Positions 1,845 through 8,153 of a stretch of DNA of 8,153 nucleotides are shown here, piece by piece. The stretch is from Chloroflexota bacterium (GTDB lineage Bacteria > Chloroflexota > Ktedonobacteria > Ktedonobacterales > Ktedonobacteraceae). The position numbers were made by a program, and so were the translations under genes. The notes below the pieces were generated by a model. That model had not been told where the DNA came from. It saw only the letters and a program-made list of their open reading frames with translations, and made no database searches. The stretch lies in NCBI GenBank assembly GCA_005879655.1, contig VBJK01000110.1, forward strand, positions 1 through 8,153, in the 5' to 3' direction. Position 1 is the stretch's first letter. Each line of letters starts with the position of its first letter.

Positions 1845-2407
1845 TCAGTCCATCATTCTGGGGGCAGACACTACGCCTACCAGGACCATGGTCCAGATTC
1901 CAGGAAAGGCACAATGACTGGCACAGCGAGAGTTCCTTGCAAGCTCAAAGGGTGTAGGCTTCTTCTCATGGAGGGCCTGTATGCGAGATCGTGCCCAGAC
2001 CACGGCCTGCTCGACGGCCTTTTGCGCACGAGACTCACCACCAGCCCGCAAGGCCTTAGCCGCCAATGCGGTAGCATAAGCTGGTTCAAACCAGCAATAA
2101 CCTGCCCAGCTCCCGTCGTCTTGTTGTGCATCCAGCAGATAATCAGTGAGAGCTGGCCGGAACTCGCTCAAACCTGCAACGGTAGCCGTTACACATATAT
2201 GTGGCAGGAACAAGGCACTCAAGTCAACCTCGCGTCGGGCAGCTCTAAAAAGCAGTGCAGCGCAGTGGCTTGATCCGAGCTATAAGTTGAGATACCGTCT
2301 CCAGTCATATTGCGCCTCAGTAGACCTCTTGCTTTCTGTACTCGCTCATCATTGCCTCTGGTTTCCTCAAGAGAGTGTGGGAAGGAGATAGCCGATGAAT
2401 GTCTCAC
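1845..2407 (-). pseudogene. squalene-cyclase/prenyltransferase-repeat protein remnant, frameshifted
   Basis: Two minus-strand frames together look like the C-terminal part of a protein with terpene-cyclase-type alpha/alpha repeats. The upstream frame (about 2407-2219) contains TGDGISTYSSDQATALHCFL and stops at 2219. The downstream frame (2228-1845) carries HICVTATVAG, then LLDAQQDDGSW (QW motif at about 2126-2106), then WFEPAYATALAAKAL. The similarity moves between frames at about 2225-2245, so a one-base-type indel lies there. A second change of frame is likely near 1935, after PTPFELA, where the residues stop looking like the family. No N-terminal half is seen. QxxDGSW is the hallmark repeat of squalene-hopene and oxidosqualene cyclases, but many related repeat proteins are not cyclases, so no activity is assigned. 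It is transcribed divergently from the gene at 2806. Confidence 0.62.
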
Positions 2408-2805: not shown

Positions 2806-3613
2806 ATGGCGCAACAAAGCTCCTACGACATTAAGAGCATTGCTAGTAATGTAGAAATCGAAATCAAGCGGTTGAAAGCACAGGTTGAGCTGTTTTGGGA
2901 CAGCGAGTTGAAGCATTATGTGGAGTTCGGCTTGCGTGATGGGATGTCAGTAGATTGCAGAACGTTTCCCTCACTGCGATATTACGGCTCTAGAGATTGA
3001 TCCTTTGTTAGTCGATTACGCCAAACATTACCTGGCAGAAAAAAAACGGCATCGCTGTACAGTTCTGCAAGGATCTATTATGGCAACCAATCTGACGAAC
3101 GACTCTTTTGATTTCGCTCTCACCAGGATGGTGCTTGAACATTTGCCGGATGCAGTAGGTGCCATACGCGAGGTTTTGCGGATTTTAAAACCTGGAGGAA
3201 AAGCCATATTTGTTGATAATGATTTTGAGATGCACATTATGACCTATCCCCATATTCCAGCATTGAGAGAGCTATATGATGCTTACTGTCAGGCGAGATA
3301 TAACGAAGGGGGAAATCCTAAAATTGGTCGAGAATTGCCTGGTCTCTTGAAACGAGGTGGTTTTTCAAAGGTGAGGTTTGAGGTTATCAGTGCTCATAGC
3401 GATATTGTGGGTGACGAAATGTTTTTTCGCTCCGAGGGCATTGGGATTCCCTCAAAACTGGTCCATGACGGCTATCTGTCGAGCAAAATGTTGGGCAAGA
3501 TTTCAGTTGGCTGGAGAGATATGATCAACAGTGTAGATCATGCTATTATCCGACAGATCTATATGGCTGCTGGGGAGAAAGCGAGGATGCCGAAAACGAG
3601 CCACTACCGTTGA
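2806..3613 (+). pseudogene. class I SAM-dependent methyltransferase, broken by deletion of motif I
   Basis: Two frames make one methyltransferase. The first runs from ATG 2806 and stops at TGA 2998-3000. Its residues up to GLRDGMSV (end 2952) look like the N-terminal helices before motif I. Similarity resumes in another frame at about 2954 with IAERFPH, then DITALEIDPLLVDYA (about 2972-3019), the post-I strand with its acidic residue. It continues through FDFALTRMVLEHLPD (motif II/III area) and EVLRILKPGGKAIFV to TAG-free sequence ending at TGA 3611-3613. The strand and glycine loop normally found between GMSV and the Ile-Ala-Glu helix (a D/E-x-G-x-G-x-G loop, about 13 residues) are missing, and the loss also shifts the frame. 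Repaired, the protein would be about 280 residues, normal for the family. Without motif I it cannot bind SAM normally. The substrate is unknown; a tailoring role in the neighbouring cluster is a guess. A re-start at TTG 3005 would give only a fragment lacking the cofactor site. Confidence 0.8.
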
Positions 3614-3886: not shown

Positions 3887-4678
3887 ATGACACAACCGAG
3901 AACGTGGCAGGAAGTCTATGAACAGAGTTTGGTCCCGGCCATTTTTGGCCCATGGTCCACGCAAATGGTTGCATTGGCTCAACCCCGCAAAGGGGAGAGT
4001 ATCTTAGATGTGGCCTGTGGCACGGGTGTAGTGGCACGCAGAGCCTCTCAGTATGTTGGCACACACGGCAGGGTGATTGGTCTGGATATCAACCCAGGCA
4101 TGATAGAGGTTGCATGTTCCATACTGATACCTTCCGGTGTGTCTATCGAATGGCGAGTAGGTGATGCACTCATGCTTCCTTTTCCCAATGCAACGTTTGA
4201 TATTGTCTTTTGCCAGGGCGGGCTACAATTTGTACCCGATAGGCTGGCTGCACTACGTGAAATGTATCGTGTATTAAGGTCTGGAGGTCGTCTAGCTCTA
4301 ATGGTCGGTCAAGCTATTGACTACTGCCCAGGTTTCGCAATTATAGTGGATAAACTGGCGAGCTGTGTTGGTCCGCAGGCTGCGGCAATCTTATCTCTTC
4401 CCTTCTCTTTAGGGGATGTAGAGGAATTGCGCTCCTTGATGGTCGATGCTGGTTTTGAGGACATCACCATTCGCCCAGAGGTAAAGATGATACGCTTTCC
4501 ATCCCCCACAACGTTTGTCGAGGATTTGATCACTGGTTCGAGCATAGCCAGTCAAGTCGATCAAATCACTCTGGCGAAGTTGAAGACGGAAGTCAGTCAG
4601 GAACTACAGCCGTTTGCAAAAAAGGGTGCACTCTCATTTCCAATGGGAGTACACTTTGCAGTTGCACAAAGGAGATAG
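3887..4678 (+). CDS. class I SAM-dependent methyltransferase, UbiE/MenG-like
   Basis: A 263-residue protein with a complete Rossmann-type methyltransferase fold. Motif I is ILDVACGTG (residues 39-47), followed by VIGLDINPGMI with acidic Asp67 for the SAM ribose. GDALMLPF (92-99) gives the adenine-contacting Asp93, then FDIVFCQGGLQFV (104-116) for motif II and LREMYRVLRSGGRLAL for motif III. The C-terminal half, with FEDITI and a helical insertion, is where the acceptor would bind and is not diagnostic. The family methylates quinones, small molecules and polyketides; placement in a PKS/NRPS cluster suggests a tailoring C-, O- or N-methyltransferase, but the acceptor cannot be told from sequence. 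ATG 3887 has no clear Shine-Dalgarno sequence, and no better in-frame start lies upstream. It sits 79 bp before the dehydrogenase and follows a good promoter. Unlike the methyltransferase at 2806, it looks functional. Confidence 0.9.
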   Translation: MTQPRTWQEVYEQSLVPAIFGPWSTQMVALAQPRKGESILDVACGTGVVARRASQYVGTHGRVIGLDINPGMIEVACSILIPSGVSIEWRVGDALMLPFPNATFDIVFCQGGLQFVPDRLAALREMYRVLRSGGRLALMVGQAIDYCPGFAIIVDKLASCVGPQAAAILSLPFSLGDVEELRSLMVDAGFEDITIRPEVKMIRFPSPTTFVEDLITGSSIASQVDQITLAKLKTEVSQELQPFAKKGALSFPMGVHFAVAQRR

Positions 4679-4757: not shown

Positions 4758-5897
4758 ATGGATTTTTCTTGGACTGAGGCGCAGGACGAAATCTATCACC
4801 GCCTGCTCTCTCTTGTACAAAACAAACTGCCTATGAGAGAGATGCATTCAGATCAATGGTGGACACGTGCTCAATGGCTGCTGTGTGGAGATTTGAAGTT
4901 GCTGGGGTTGAGCGTGCCAACAAGCTATGGGGGATGTGGCTATGATGCATTGACCACTGCGCGGGCTATTGAAGCGTTTGGGCTTGGGTGCGAGGTTATG
5001 TGCTTGGTTTTCTCGGCATCCGCTCATCTTTTTGCATGTGCTATGCCCATTGTGGAGTATGGGGATGACGCGATGAAAGCCCGGGTCTTGCCAGGCTTGT
5101 GCTCTGGAAGGCTCATCGGCGCAAATGCTATTACGGAAGACGAGGCTGGCTCGGATGTCTTTGCCTTAAAAACTCGCGCTGAACGCCATGGCGATTTCTA
5201 TGTCTTAGAAGGTCAGAAAAGCTACGTCAGCAATGCCCCTGTTGCTGATCTTTTTGTGGTCTATGCTGTCACCAATCCTGCTCATGGCTATCTTGGCATC
5301 AGTACCTTTCTCGTTGAGAAAGATACCCCTGGCCTGACCATTGGACAACCATTCCGCAAACTGGGGCTAACAAGTACTCCAGCTTCGCGCATTTCTTTTG
5401 ATGCTTGCCGTATACCTGCCAGCAATAGACTTGGCAACGAAGGACAAGGTTCACACATCTTCAAGAGATCAATGCAATGGGAGCGCGCCTGCCTATTTGC
5501 TGCTTACCTGGGACAGATGGAACGCCTGCTTGAGCGAACGCTGACCCATGCCCAAAAGCGACGCCAATTTGGCAAGCCATTAGCCAAGCACCAGGCTATT
5601 GCCCATCGTCTTGCTGATATGAAAGCCAGACTTGAAGCAGCTCGTCTCTTGCTCTATCGTGCTTGCTGGCGTTTTGACCATGGGCAGGATGCCGTGTTAG
5701 ATATTTCGTTATCCAAGCTAGCGGTCAGCGAAGCCGCTGTCCTGGGGGGACTTGATGCCATCCATATTTATGGTGCGACAGGCATTAACTGTGAATATGG
5801 GATAGAACAGATGTTGCGTGATGCACTTCCTTCAACCGTTTTTTCGGGGACATCTGAAATGTTACGTGATATGATTGCCAGCGAGTTGGGATTGTGA
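4758..5897 (+). CDS. acyl-CoA-dehydrogenase-family flavoprotein, probable L-prolyl-[carrier protein] dehydrogenase
   Basis: A full-length 379-residue acyl-CoA-dehydrogenase-fold protein, preceded by AAAAGG 7 nt before the ATG. Landmarks are NAITEDEAGSD (123-133, flavin/substrate loop), GQKSYVSNAPVADLFVVYA (152-170), RRQFGKPL (268-275) and the C-terminal FSGTSEMLRDMIA (362-374). As I remember PigA (prodigiosin), it shares the LLYRACWRFDHGQDA segment, the PVADLF/NPAHGYLG area and the PSTVFSGT ending. The Glu that acts as base in medium-chain acyl-CoA dehydrogenase (before GT) is Ser363 here. Glu242 in QWERACLF lines up with the alternative base of isovaleryl-CoA dehydrogenase and is the likely catalytic residue. 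The expected role is FAD-dependent oxidation of prolyl-S-carrier protein to the pyrrolyl (or pyrrolinyl) thioester in the cytoplasm. The partner genes directly downstream support this. An FkbI-like dehydrogenase of an alkoxymalonyl-carrier-protein pathway is the alternative. Confidence 0.82.
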   Translation: MDFSWTEAQDEIYHRLLSLVQNKLPMREMHSDQWWTRAQWLLCGDLKLLGLSVPTSYGGCGYDALTTARAIEAFGLGCEVMCLVFSASAHLFACAMPIVEYGDDAMKARVLPGLCSGRLIGANAITEDEAGSDVFALKTRAERHGDFYVLEGQKSYVSNAPVADLFVVYAVTNPAHGYLGISTFLVEKDTPGLTIGQPFRKLGLTSTPASRISFDACRIPASNRLGNEGQGSHIFKRSMQWERACLFAAYLGQMERLLERTLTHAQKRRQFGKPLAKHQAIAHRLADMKARLEAARLLLYRACWRFDHGQDAVLDISLSKLAVSEAAVLGGLDAIHIYGATGINCEYGIEQMLRDALPSTVFSGTSEMLRDMIASELGL

Positions 5898-5898
5898 C

Positions 5899-6348
5899 AT
5901 GCGTACCCTGGCTACCACAAAACTTTGTTACTGGGGACAACCACCCCAGAGAGATCAACCCTACAGAACTGGCGATCTAGTGCGTTTGCTCGCTGATGGG
6001 AATTATGCCTACGTTGGTCGATGTGATCAGATGTTAAAAGTGCGTGGCTATCGCATTGAGCCTGGCGATATTGAGACCGTACTTGAGCAACATCCCGCCA
6101 TTGCTAAGGCGGCAGTGCTTGTCACTGGTACAGGTTTAGAGGCCCGCATGGTCGCCTTCGTGGTTTGTGCCAATAATGCGCCTCCTTCGCTCTTAGAGAT
6201 TAAAAAACTCTGTTCAGTGCATTTACTACGCTCTATGATTATAGATGATATTCATGCTATTTGTGATCTTCCTATCACAAGGAATGGCGAAATTGATCGT
6301 CTTGCATTATCATATCTCCTACAAGATGAGAAAAGGAGTACGAGATGA
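5899..6348 (+). CDS. C-terminal stump of an NRPS adenylation domain (probably proline-activating)
   Basis: An open frame of about 149 residues that is only the end of an adenylation domain. It shows YWGQPPQRDQPYRTGDLVR (A7), GRCDQMLKVRGYRIEPGDIE (A8 with the hinge area), then HPAIAKAAVL and LPITRNGEIDRLAL (A10). Free-standing adenylation domains are about 500 residues. Core motifs A1-A6, most of the ATP site and the whole amino-acid pocket are absent. About 10 unrelated-looking residues (MRTLATTKL) precede YWGQ, as if the gene's own start had been joined in frame to its last third. The A10 lysine, needed for adenylate formation, is Glu (GAA, 6289-6291). ATG 5899 overlaps nothing and lies 1 nt after the dehydrogenase stop; TTG 5875 in the same frame is possible but less likely. 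In context the intact protein would have loaded L-proline on the carrier protein at 6345. It is almost surely inactive now. Confidence 0.8.
   Translation: MRTLATTKLCYWGQPPQRDQPYRTGDLVRLLADGNYAYVGRCDQMLKVRGYRIEPGDIETVLEQHPAIAKAAVLVTGTGLEARMVAFVVCANNAPPSLLEIKKLCSVHLLRSMIIDDIHAICDLPITRNGEIDRLALSYLLQDEKRSTR
6331..6338 (+). promoter_or_regulatory. strong ribosome binding site with ATGA overlap
   Basis: AAAAGGAG lies 6 nt before ATG 6345, inside the end of the adenylation-domain frame. The ATG overlaps that frame's TGA stop as ATGA, so translation of the carrier protein is probably coupled to it. This would keep pressure on the truncated frame to remain open even after its own function was lost. 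Confidence 0.65.
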
Positions 6349-6605
6349 ACCGCACGGTCATTGTTGAACAGTTAAAAAATTATATTGCGCAAGATGTCCT
6401 GGGTGGCAAAGATATCGGCCTGGATGAAACGACACCTCTCCTGGCATGGGGACTCATCAACTCTCTGGAGATGGTAAAGTTACTACGTTTTATTCGCCAA
6501 TGCTTTAAGGTTGACATTTCCACCGATAAACTATCTGCTGACTTCTTTACCGATATCGCATCTATTACCAATCTTATCCTGGAACAGATGCCCAGTCAAT
6601 CCTAG
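6345..6605 (+). CDS. free-standing acyl/peptidyl carrier protein
   Basis: An 86-residue four-helix carrier protein. TPLLAWGLINSLEMVKLL (30-47) is the 4'-phosphopantetheine attachment region, with Ser40 as the modified residue (GLINSLE in place of the usual GxDSL). The amphipathic first helix (VEQLKNYIAQDVL) and the helix-3/4 part (LSADFFTDIASITNLIL) are present, so the domain looks complete. Asn39 in place of Asp before the serine is seen in free-standing carrier proteins of the TPLLEWGILNSL type. After activation by a phosphopantetheinyl transferase it would hold the aminoacyl group for the dehydrogenase encoded at 4758 and pass the oxidised starter to the ketosynthase encoded at 6626. It sits between the adenylation stump (4-nt overlap) and the PKS (20-bp gap), the expected place. 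Confidence 0.88.
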   Translation: MNRTVIVEQLKNYIAQDVLGGKDIGLDETTPLLAWGLINSLEMVKLLRFIRQCFKVDISTDKLSADFFTDIASITNLILEQMPSQS

Positions 6606-6625
6606 AACTTTGTAGGTTTGTATTC

Positions 6626-8153
6626 ATGAGAAAGATAGAGATGCAGGATATTGAACAGGAGCCAATAGCGATTATTGGGATGGGATGTCGTTTTCCGAGG
6701 GCCAATAATCTCCAGGAGTTCTGGACGCTTTTACACACAGGCCAGGATGCGCTTCAAGAGGTCCCGGCACATCGTTGGGACATTCAAAGGCTGTATGATC
6801 CTGATCGAACCGTACCCGGAAAAATGGCGAGCCGTTGGGGAGGCTTTCTTGATCAGGTAGACCAGTTTGATTGGCGGGCCTTTCGCATGCTCCCTCGTGA
6901 GGCCACTGCTATGGACCCGCAACACCGTCTCTTACTAGAAGTGGCCTGGGAAGCCCTGGAGGATGCTGGATTACCATTGGAGCAAGTGGCTGGCAGTCAG
7001 ACCAGTGTCTCGCTTGGCATTGGCTGGAATGACTATCTGCGTTTACGTGCTCGTAACTGGTCGCAACTGGACGATTACACGGCTCTAGGCAACGCCGATG
7101 GTGCAGCTGCACATCGTCTTTCGTATTTCTTTGATCTCAGAGGTCCCAGTGTTGCGGTCAATAGCTTGTGCACATCAGGACTTTCTGCTCTTCACCTTGC
7201 CTGTCAGAGTCTGTGGGCTGGCGAGGCAAGTCTTGCGCTTGCCGGTGGTGTCAGCCTGACATTATCGCCTGACAGTATGATCATGGTCTCTCAAGCGGGA
7301 CTGCTCTCAGCAGACGGGCGCTGCAAAACGCTTGATGCGGCAGCCGATGGCTACGTGCGAGGTGAAGGTGCTGGCATTGTTGTGCTCAAGCCTCTGTCTC
7401 AAGTCAGCGGGTCTGATCGCGTGTATGCACTCATTCGTGCTATAGCGGCAAATCACAATGGCCACAACTAGTGGATTATTGCTGCTAGCCAGACAGCGCA
7501 AGAGGCATTGCTGCGAGACGCCTATCGCAAAGCGGGTCTTCATCCAGCTCAAGTCGATTATGTTGAACTGCATGGCACAGGATTTGTGCGCGGGGATAGT
7601 ATCGAGACCGCAGCTTTAGGTGCAGTGCTGGGCAACTGCCTAGAGCGTACACATCCCTGTTTCGTAGGATCGGTCAAAACGAATATTGGCCATCTAGATG
7701 CTGCATCGGGTATAGCCAGTGTCATGAAAGTCGCCCTTTCGCTTTTTCATCAGCACATCCCTCCCACGTTGAATCTAGAGACCTTGAATCCTGATATTCA
7801 TCTTTCCGACCTGCATTTAGCGGTACCCCAGATGTGCATCCCCTGGCCGGAGAAAGCCGCAGAGACAGCTTATCCACAGGTCGCAGGGGTAACGACACTC
7901 GCATTTAGTGGTGCAAATGCTCATGCTGTTCTCACTGCCTATCGGAGCCAGGTGGATGAAGAACAGCGCCAGCACGAAAACGATGATGAACAGGTCTACC
8001 GTCTTCTGCCCGTATCCGCACGGGATAAACCAGCTCTCGATGAGCTGGCCGCAGCCTATCGAGATTTTCTTTGCACTGCTGAGACGGCACCCGCCTTTCG
8101 TGATATTTGTTACACGGCCAGTCTGCGCAGAACACATCACAGTTATCGTCTGG
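6626..8153 (+). pseudogene. modular type I polyketide synthase, first ketosynthase split by an in-frame TAG; continues past the window
   Basis: The protein starts at ATG 6626 (a second in-frame ATG is at 6641) with no docking or loading domain. It enters a ketosynthase at once: PIAIIGMGCRFPRANN (13-28), MDPQHRLLLEVAWEALEDAG (96-115) and the nucleophile in VNSLCTSGLSALHLAC (Cys182, codon 7169-7171). GADGYVRGEGAG-type sequence then leads to NHNGHN, where TAG (7469-7471) stops the frame at residue 281. The same frame goes on without another stop to the right edge: WIIAASQTAQEALL, YVELHGTGFVRGDSIE (His316), VGSVKTNIGHLDAASGI (His356), then the conserved FSGANAHAVL end and the KS-AT linker (YRLLPVSARDKPALDELAAAYR). 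The Cys-His-His triad is therefore encoded, but across a nonsense codon. The ordinary Cys, not Gln, means it would extend a starter received from a separate carrier protein. AT and later domains lie beyond the window. Readthrough or a sequencing error is possible. Confidence 0.88.

What the first reader, a model, noticed from the sequence alone, without database searches (positions are those of the whole stretch)
4758..8153. Remnant of a pyrrolyl-primed polyketide pathway in a probable Chloroflexota genome
A PigA/RedW/PltE-like dehydrogenase, an adenylation-domain stump, a free-standing carrier protein and a KS-first PKS lie in one co-directional run. This set is known from prodigiosin, pyoluteorin and anatoxin pathways, where proline is loaded, oxidised and used as a PKS starter. 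The genes and order are read from the sequence; the proline substrate is inferred because the specificity pocket is deleted. A cluster of this type in Ktedonobacteria would be unusual and may point to intact relatives making an undescribed pyrrole or pyrroline polyketide.
Basis: partly seen in the sequence, partly recalled or inferred. Interest (0 to 1): 0.75.

Follow-up and report, generated by a model that had tools for sequence, protein, structure and literature searches.

The report
Decayed pyrrole-starter polyketide gene set
This stretch of a soil bacterium's DNA (class Ktedonobacteria) holds a broken copy of genes that turn the amino acid proline into a pyrrole ring and feed it to a polyketide factory; unbroken relatives exist and probably make chlorinated pyrrole compounds related to the known myxobacterial pyrronazols.

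Summary
Window 4758-8153 carries, on one strand, a prolyl-carrier-type dehydrogenase, the last third of a stand-alone adenylation enzyme, a free carrier protein and a KS-first PKS. The adenylation gene has lost about 350 residues with the whole pocket; the KS is cut by one in-frame TAG. The same truncated adenylation protein (99%) occurs in a second record, so the deletion is not special to this assembly. The dehydrogenase groups with enzymes that sit beside PltF-like proline adenylators, not with ordinary acyl-CoA dehydrogenases. Of 47 class genomes, 4 have the dehydrogenase; all 4 have a PltF-like adenylation gene next to it (pocket identical or one change) and a PltA-like halogenase in the genome. 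The window is a dead member of a known kind; the intact relatives are the interesting part.

The parts
4758..5897 (+). Prolyl-S-carrier-type FAD dehydrogenase, whole open frame; W241-E242-R243, invariant in the family alignment, kept
   Evidence: NCBIfam PigA 463.5 bits, RedW 445.8, next model 240.9; PDB 6cxt_B 362.5, 4irn prolyl-ACP dehydrogenase 332.7, 5zw0 328.8, 6af6 326.1, next 236.7 bits; invariant columns; tree
5899..6348 (+). Adenylation enzyme remnant: only the C-terminal part; pocket absent; A10 lysine replaced (NGEIDR)
   Evidence: PDB best one-domain match PltF 6o6e_B, 112.7 bits (two-domain gramicidin synthases list 116); aligns to residues 350-487 of the 499 of the intact L001 protein; same truncation in P0121
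6345..6605 (+). Free-standing peptidyl carrier protein, attachment serine kept (WGLINSLEM)
   Evidence: Five PDB hits: PltL twice, the carrier of 6cxt, 5jdx (a putative carrier), PigG; Pfam PP-binding
6626..7468 (+). Ketosynthase N-terminal part with active-site Cys (CTSG)
   Evidence: Pfam ketoacyl-synt 5.5e-90; motif; KS tree
7469..7471 (+). In-frame TAG that cuts the KS; L001, L002, L097 and L010 have sense codons here
7472..8153 (+). Rest of the KS (HGTG and NIGH motifs) and start of the linker, same frame, runs off the window
   Evidence: Pfam Ketoacyl-synt_C 1.9e-29; motifs

Best explanation
The stretch is a decayed copy, probably recent, of a pyrrole starter-unit cassette. In the working form, a stand-alone proline-specific adenylation enzyme loads L-proline on the free carrier protein, the flavin dehydrogenase oxidises prolyl-S-carrier to pyrrolyl-S-carrier, a flavin halogenase (present in the relatives, not seen in the window) chlorinates the ring, and the first ketosynthase takes the pyrrolyl group into a PKS/NRPS line. 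In the window's organism the adenylation gene has lost its first two thirds and its A10 lysine, and the ketosynthase has an in-frame stop, so this copy should neither load proline nor make the PKS: the pathway is dead unless another copy helps. SHOWN: gene identities by similarity, order, deletion, stop codon, tree positions, pocket motifs and halogenase similarity in relatives. INFERRED: the reactions, the chlorination, and that decay rather than a new use of the pieces is what we see.
For: Dehydrogenase. Stump like PltF. Carrier: of five PDB hits, three are PltL or PigG and one is the carrier crystallised with the dehydrogenase that ranks first (6cxt); the fifth, 5jdx, is of a pathway unknown to me. 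Relatives: an A domain directly downstream of the dehydrogenase in 38 of the 40 loci printed (80 loci were fetched, 40 printed). Ktedonobacteria L001, L002, L003, L097: dehydrogenase-A-carrier in 4 of 4, KS next in 3 of 4. The two A proteins compared whole match PltF best (469 and 444 bits); the other stand-alone proline ligase has 259 and 242, two-domain gramicidin synthases up to 400 and 370 summed over two domains. Halogenase of L002: 5buk, ChlB4, PltA at 563-592 bits, next 161; found in 5 of 47 class genomes at E <= 1e-80, including all 4 with the dehydrogenase. KS of window, L001, L002, L097 form one clade (98) inside a 12-row clade (100) with Nannocystis and Myxococcus.
Against: No halogenase, thioesterase or transporter was found in the window; two methyltransferase genes lie upstream instead and are not seen beside the relatives' cassettes, apart from a distant one (32-39%) in L003 (weak matches also in L029 and L039). 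The dehydrogenase misses the NCBIfam cut-offs (463.5 of 500; 445.8 of 650), but so does the P. protegens protein in the pltE position (446.6; 416.3). ChlB4, which ranks between Mpy16 and PltA, is as I recall not a pyrrole halogenase, so the halogenase's substrate is not fixed by similarity. Changes at conserved sites do not prove decay: dehydrogenase 4 of 128 columns (relatives' mean 1.5, median 1; 12 of 116 have 4 or more), KS 1 of 63 (67 of 108 relatives equal or more) (relatives under 370 and under 270 aa were left out, 3 and 11 of 119 each). In K. robiniae both A and KS are split between frames, so of three relatives with A and KS two are whole. In L003 no KS match lies in the 10 kb downstream and the halogenase is some 22 kb off.
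Confidence: 0.85

Rival explanations
1. The cassette is still alive: another adenylation enzyme in the genome loads the carrier in trans, and the KS stop is suppressed, or dehydrogenase and carrier serve another pathway.
For: Dehydrogenase and carrier frames are whole, with the WER motif and the carrier serine kept; few changes at conserved sites.
Against: TAG also ends the carrier and the second methyltransferase gene here as an ordinary stop, so recoding is not suggested; the stump has also lost its A10 lysine. The window's genome is not held, so a second A gene could not be looked for.
Confidence: 0.07
2. The breaks are sequencing or assembly errors and the true genes are whole.
For: The KS break is a single codon; the quality of the window's record is unknown; K. 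robiniae has splits in the same two genes.
Against: A second record has the same truncated A protein (P0121, 149 aa, 99%, 3 members), though it could come from the same population. The KS stop could not be checked in a second record, because P0155 ends before it. A neighbouring methyltransferase is broken too.
Confidence: 0.06
3. The intact pathway stops at 1-pyrroline (two-electron oxidation, as recalled for anatoxin biosynthesis) instead of pyrrole.
For: Order dehydrogenase-A-carrier-KS is as recalled for anatoxin clusters; the prolyl-ACP dehydrogenase 4irn (AnaB, name recalled) is the second best solved structure.
Against: The four class genomes with the dehydrogenase all have a PltA/Mpy16-like halogenase (pyrrolyl substrates of PltA and Mpy16 recalled); the KS groups with Nannocystis clusters likely for pyrronazol.
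Confidence: 0.08
4. The dehydrogenase is an ordinary fatty-acid or FkbI-like enzyme next to an unrelated PKS.
For: It has the general acyl-CoA dehydrogenase domains.
Against: The other acyl-CoA dehydrogenases of three relatives' genomes are at most 37% identical to it, against 63-72% for the proline-type ones; separate clade with support 100. FkbI was not placed in the tree; its structure (1R2J, recalled) is not among the best 60 of 117 hits shown.
Confidence: 0.01

Closest known systems
Pyrronazol B-type clusters of Nannocystis (RBIL2 = L013, L119, L120; BB15-2 = L010)
   Same: Dehydrogenase - PltF-like A - carrier - halogenase - AT-less KS-ACP; first KS in the same 100-support clade as the window's. 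PMC10435759 (passages) lists a cluster likely for pyrronazol B in RBIL2 and one likely for an analogue in BB15-2; that this locus is that cluster is my inference.
   Different: After the first KS, RBIL2 has KS-AT-DH-KR-ACP and only then condensation-A-oxidase-carrier; ktedonobacterial L001 and L002 go straight into that module. Window: broken and cut off after the KS.
Pyoluteorin PltE/PltF/PltL
   Same: 52% identical dehydrogenase in P. protegens (L048); pocket motifs of L002 as in PltF; carrier best hit PltL.
   Different: The Pseudomonas dehydrogenase falls outside the window's clade and its KS in another part of the tree.
Prodigiosin PigA/PigI/PigG and RedW
   Same: PigA and RedW are the best NCBIfam models; PigG is among the carrier hits.
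   Different: Below the curated cut-offs; the PigJ model gives the KS pieces only 48 and 74 bits against a cut-off of 900. Other prodigiosin genes were not searched for one by one; the ORFs scanned in L001, L002/L098 and L097 show a PKS/NRPS line.
Anatoxin AnaB-AnaC-AnaD-AnaE
   Same: Gene order (recalled) and dehydrogenase similarity (4irn).
   Different: Not compared gene by gene; the relatives have PltA-like halogenases, which I do not recall from anatoxin clusters.

Membership tests
Prolyl-S-carrier dehydrogenase (PigA/RedW/PltE/AnaB) | Best match to family models and solved members, with a gap to ordinary acyl-CoA dehydrogenases | tested here: met
Prolyl-S-carrier dehydrogenase (PigA/RedW/PltE/AnaB) | NCBIfam curated cut-off for PigA (500) or RedW (650) | tested here: not met
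   463.5 and 445.8 bits; the P. protegens protein in the pltE position also fails (446.6 and 416.3), so the models are narrower than the wider family; I do not call it PigA or RedW
Prolyl-S-carrier dehydrogenase (PigA/RedW/PltE/AnaB) | Oxidises prolyl-carrier | not testable with these tools
   needs an assay
Stand-alone proline adenylation enzyme (PltF type) | Proline pocket in the window's own enzyme | not testable with these tools
   pocket deleted in window
Stand-alone proline adenylation enzyme (PltF type) | Proline pocket in homologues in the same gene position | tested here: met
   Read by motif, pocket positions recalled: L002 as PltF; L001 one change (Arg for Cys), L097 and L008 Ile for Leu, L003 Phe for Leu; PltF best structure for L097 and L001
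Stand-alone proline adenylation enzyme (PltF type) | Complete enzyme with A10 lysine | tested here: not met
   about 350 residues missing, NGE in place of NGK
Pyrronazol-type first module | First KS in the Nannocystis/Ktedonobacteria/Myxococcus clade | tested here: met
   12 of 59 rows, support 100 (FastTree, KS N-terminal part only)
Pyrronazol-type first module | AT absent or without its active-site motif, and halogenase in the cluster | tested here: inconclusive
   window ends before the AT position and shows no halogenase; in relatives the AT lacks GHSxGE (L001, L002) or is absent (L097, L010, RBIL2)
Anatoxin pathway | AnaE/F/G module series and AnaA thioesterase | not tested
   window ends in the first KS

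The most novel reading that the evidence does not exclude
Ktedonobacteria carry their own line of halogenated pyrrole pathways in which the first ketosynthase does not elongate but only hands the pyrrolyl group over (its AT is gone or has lost the active-site motif), so that in the L001/L002 type the next module (cyclisation, Cys-code adenylation, built-in oxidase) makes a chlorinated 2-pyrrolyl-thiazole directly, a scaffold that I did not meet for this phylum in my paper searches; and the line is being lost repeatedly (window; K. robiniae with split A and KS; a Dictyobacter genome with a split KS and neither dehydrogenase nor halogenase at the thresholds used).
Probability: 0.3. Interest if true: 0.55.

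Novelty: new member of a known kind. Interest (0 to 1): 0.35.

Why it matters
It shows that proline-derived pyrrole starter genes, known from Pseudomonas, Serratia, Streptomyces and myxobacteria, form a distinct line in soil Ktedonobacteria, with intact copies (L001, and the complete genome behind L097) that could be tested for a chlorinated pyrrole-thiazole or related product. The window adds an example of the loss of such a pathway. It does not by itself open a new kind of system.

Tried and rejected
Ordinary acyl-CoA dehydrogenase: rejected. The first dehydrogenase tree lost 49 of 81 proline-type rows and several of the nine outgroup rows to a bad extraction rule; it was replaced (all 91 rows) and is not used. 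Frame-shift in the KS, as the two ORFs first suggested: rejected, both pieces are in one frame. Excess of changes at conserved sites as proof of decay: not found. Codon-position comparison with relatives: too distant to date the decay. Reading the Nannocystis module from long spurious GC-rich frames failed; the right frame was then read, but its substrate code is not used. Upstream methyltransferases as part of the cassette: no support. Repeats in 2400-2810 and tRNAs in the window: none found. Plasmid search: best relative 61.5% on a Brasilonema plasmid, not followed. No structure prediction was run. Paper searches: Ktedonobacteria + gene cluster + polyketide, 22 papers, 20 listed, two opened for passages; Ktedonobacter + pyrrole, two listings, by title unrelated; pyrronazol, 14 papers, 12 listed, two opened for passages; pyrrolyl/proline/halogenase sets and chlorinated pyrrole + thiazole, and Chloroflexi + pyrrole/prodigiosin/halogenase, no such pathway in the titles and abstract starts listed; anatoxin + prolyl-ACP, none. 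'Not met for this phylum' rests on these.
Full report
WHAT IS THERE. The window begins with a 16S rRNA gene on the minus strand (1-1402). Of 47 held genomes of the class of K. robiniae 41 match; full-length matches run from 77 to 87%, most of those listed 84-87%, best G046. In a draw of 301 genomes of the phylum 10 passed the cut-off: nine belong to that class set (79-86%) and one outside it has 79%. So the organism is most likely a Ktedonobacteria member of a lineage without a held close genome; the window's own genome is not held. From 4758 to the right end four genes follow on the plus strand: a 379-aa flavin dehydrogenase, an adenylation remnant, an 86-aa carrier protein and a ketosynthase that runs off the window.

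THE DEHYDROGENASE. The best NCBIfam models are PigA (463.5 bits, cut-off 500) and prolyl-carrier dehydrogenase RedW (445.8, cut-off 650); the next is 240.9. Neither cut-off is met, but the protein of Pseudomonas protegens in the pltE position, next to an adenylation gene nearly identical to the solved PltF in the printed stretch, scores 446.6 and 416.3. The best solved structures are 6cxt_B, the prolyl-ACP dehydrogenase 4irn (AnaB, name recalled), 5zw0 and 6af6 at 326-363 bits; the next falls to 237. In the genomes of L001, L002 and L003 the proline-type enzyme is 63-72% identical and the other matches, 28 of 31, at most 37%. In a tree of 91 rows (window, 81 proline-type, nine ordinary) the ordinary ones split off with support 100 and the window groups with L001 and L097 (96), then L002 (85), then L003 and the cyanobacterium Mojavia (97) (quick method, LG+G4). 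FkbI and other named references were not in it.

THE ADENYLATION REMNANT. The stump aligns to residues 350-487 of the 499-residue intact protein of L001, so about 350 residues with the whole pocket are gone, and the A10 lysine is a glutamate. Its best one-domain solved relative is PltF. The deletion is therefore not special to this assembly, although both records could come from one population.

THE CARRIER AND THE KS. Of five solved relatives of the carrier, three are PltL or PigG, one is the carrier of the 6cxt complex and one (5jdx) is a putative carrier of a pathway unknown to me. The KS has its Cys, HGTG and NIGH motifs, but an in-frame TAG at 7469-7471 cuts it; L001, L002, L097 and L010 have sense codons there. 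TAG is an ordinary stop of two neighbouring genes here, so recoding is not suggested. Whether the TAG occurs in other records could not be tested, because P0155 ends before it.

RELATIVES. A scan of the species genomes gave 172 relatives, of which the best 80 were kept. In the 40 loci printed, 38 have an A domain directly downstream of the dehydrogenase. Of 47 class genomes 4 have the dehydrogenase at E <= 1e-90: L001 (a Ktedonobacteraceae MAG), L002 (K. robiniae), L003 (Ktedonosporobacter rubrisoli) and L097 (G029; its contig length, 8,879,929, is that given for a protein of Ktedonobacteria bacterium brp13). All four have A and carrier next to it, three have the KS next. Pocket residues read by motif, positions recalled, against PltF of P. 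protegens: L002 the same; L001 one change (Arg for Cys), L097 and L008 Ile for Leu, L003 Phe for Leu. Whole A proteins of L097 and L001 match PltF at 469 and 444 bits and the other stand-alone proline ligase at 259 and 242; two-domain gramicidin synthases list up to 400 and 370, summed over two domains. The K. robiniae copy is itself split between reading frames in A and in KS, so two of these three KS-bearing relatives are whole.

HALOGENASE AND PRODUCT. Upstream of the dehydrogenase L001 and L002 have a TauD-like oxygenase, (MbtH in L001), thioesterase, a flavin halogenase and an antiporter. The L002 halogenase matches 5buk, ChlB4 and PltA at 563-592 bits, next 161 (5buk is Mpy16, recalled; ChlB4 is, as I recall, not a pyrrole enzyme). 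It occurs in 5 of 47 class genomes at E <= 1e-80, among them all 4 with the dehydrogenase, though in L003 about 22 kb away. Downstream, L001 and L002 have KS - AT without the active-site motif - ACP - condensation domain with a cyclisation-like motif - A with the code DLYNLSLIWK (read in L001; a Cys code, recalled) - built-in nitroreductase-type oxidase - carrier. L097 has KS-ACP without AT and then an ordinary C-A-PCP. The window's KS, with L001, L002 and L097, forms a clade of support 98 inside a 12-row clade of support 100 with Nannocystis and Myxococcus KS domains (FastTree, N-terminal KS part). The Nannocystis RBIL2 locus reads dehydrogenase-A-carrier-halogenase-[KS-ACP]-[KS-AT-DH-KR-ACP]-[condensation-A-oxidase-carrier]-two more KS-AT units and a thioesterase match. 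PMC10435759 (passages) lists a cluster likely for pyrronazol B in RBIL2 and one likely for an analogue in BB15-2, and PMC4902002 (two passages) describes pyrronazols as halogenated pyrrole-oxazoles, A, A2 and B with a pyrone. That this locus is that cluster is my inference from the parts.

MECHANISM. Most likely working form: proline activation and loading by A, oxidation on the carrier to pyrrole, chlorination, hand-over to the first KS, then a thiazole module in the L001/L002 type. In the window the first step and the KS are lost. The order of events, and whether the first KS elongates, are inferred.

HOW DEAD. The remaining pieces have few changes at conserved positions: dehydrogenase 4 of 128 (relatives' mean 1.5; 12 of 116 have 4 or more); KS 1 of 63 (67 of 108 equal or more) (3 and 11 of 119 listed relatives left out as too short). 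So the loss is recent, or dehydrogenase and carrier still serve something; I favour recent loss. A methyltransferase upstream (2806-3613) is broken too.

WHAT IS KNOWN. A 2026 paper (PMC13289182, four passages) mentions prodigiosin-type clusters in Dictyobacteraceae, so pyrrole-type cluster calls in the class are not new. In my paper searches (listings and abstract starts) I saw no description of a pyrrole-thiazole pathway from this phylum.

Noticed in passing
window 2806-3613 (+): A SAM methyltransferase gene broken into two frames (2806-3000, 3005-3613); a second, whole UbiE-like methyltransferase follows at 3887-4678.
   Followed up: partly
window 1845-2222 (-): A fragment with a weak squalene-hopene cyclase C-terminal match (23.0 bits, below the Pfam cut-off of 26.1), perhaps a relic.
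   Followed up: no
L002 11140-12656 and 13061-19950: In Ktedonobacter robiniae the stand-alone A gene and the first KS are each split between two reading frames: a second copy in decay, or draft errors.
   Followed up: partly
L113 2798-8975 (genome G030): A class genome with no dehydrogenase or halogenase match at the thresholds used has a split KS 64% identical to that of L001, followed by ACP and C-A-PCP. The contig length (540,077) is that of the Dictyobacter vulcani KS protein P0163 (337 aa).
   Followed up: partly
L114 1791-3095 (genome G025): PltA-like halogenase in a class genome with no dehydrogenase match at E <= 1e-90; the contig is only 11.8 kb.
   Followed up: partly
L008 7025-16715: Mojavia pulchra (cyanobacterium) has two tandem PltA-like halogenases before dehydrogenase-A-carrier, then a PLP enzyme and a UbiD decarboxylase; no KS match in the 21 kb held.
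   Followed up: partly
L004: Record titled Comamonas sp. KCTC 72670 groups tightly with Myxococcus in both trees: probably a mislabelled genome.
   Followed up: no
L054: Legionella septentrionalis has a dehydrogenase of this family with a PltF-like A domain beside it; long branch in the tree.
   Followed up: no
L097 180-2246, 5831-6529, 17509-18474: A group II intron maturase gene and two transposase genes lie around the intact cassette of G029, so it may have been moved.
   Followed up: no
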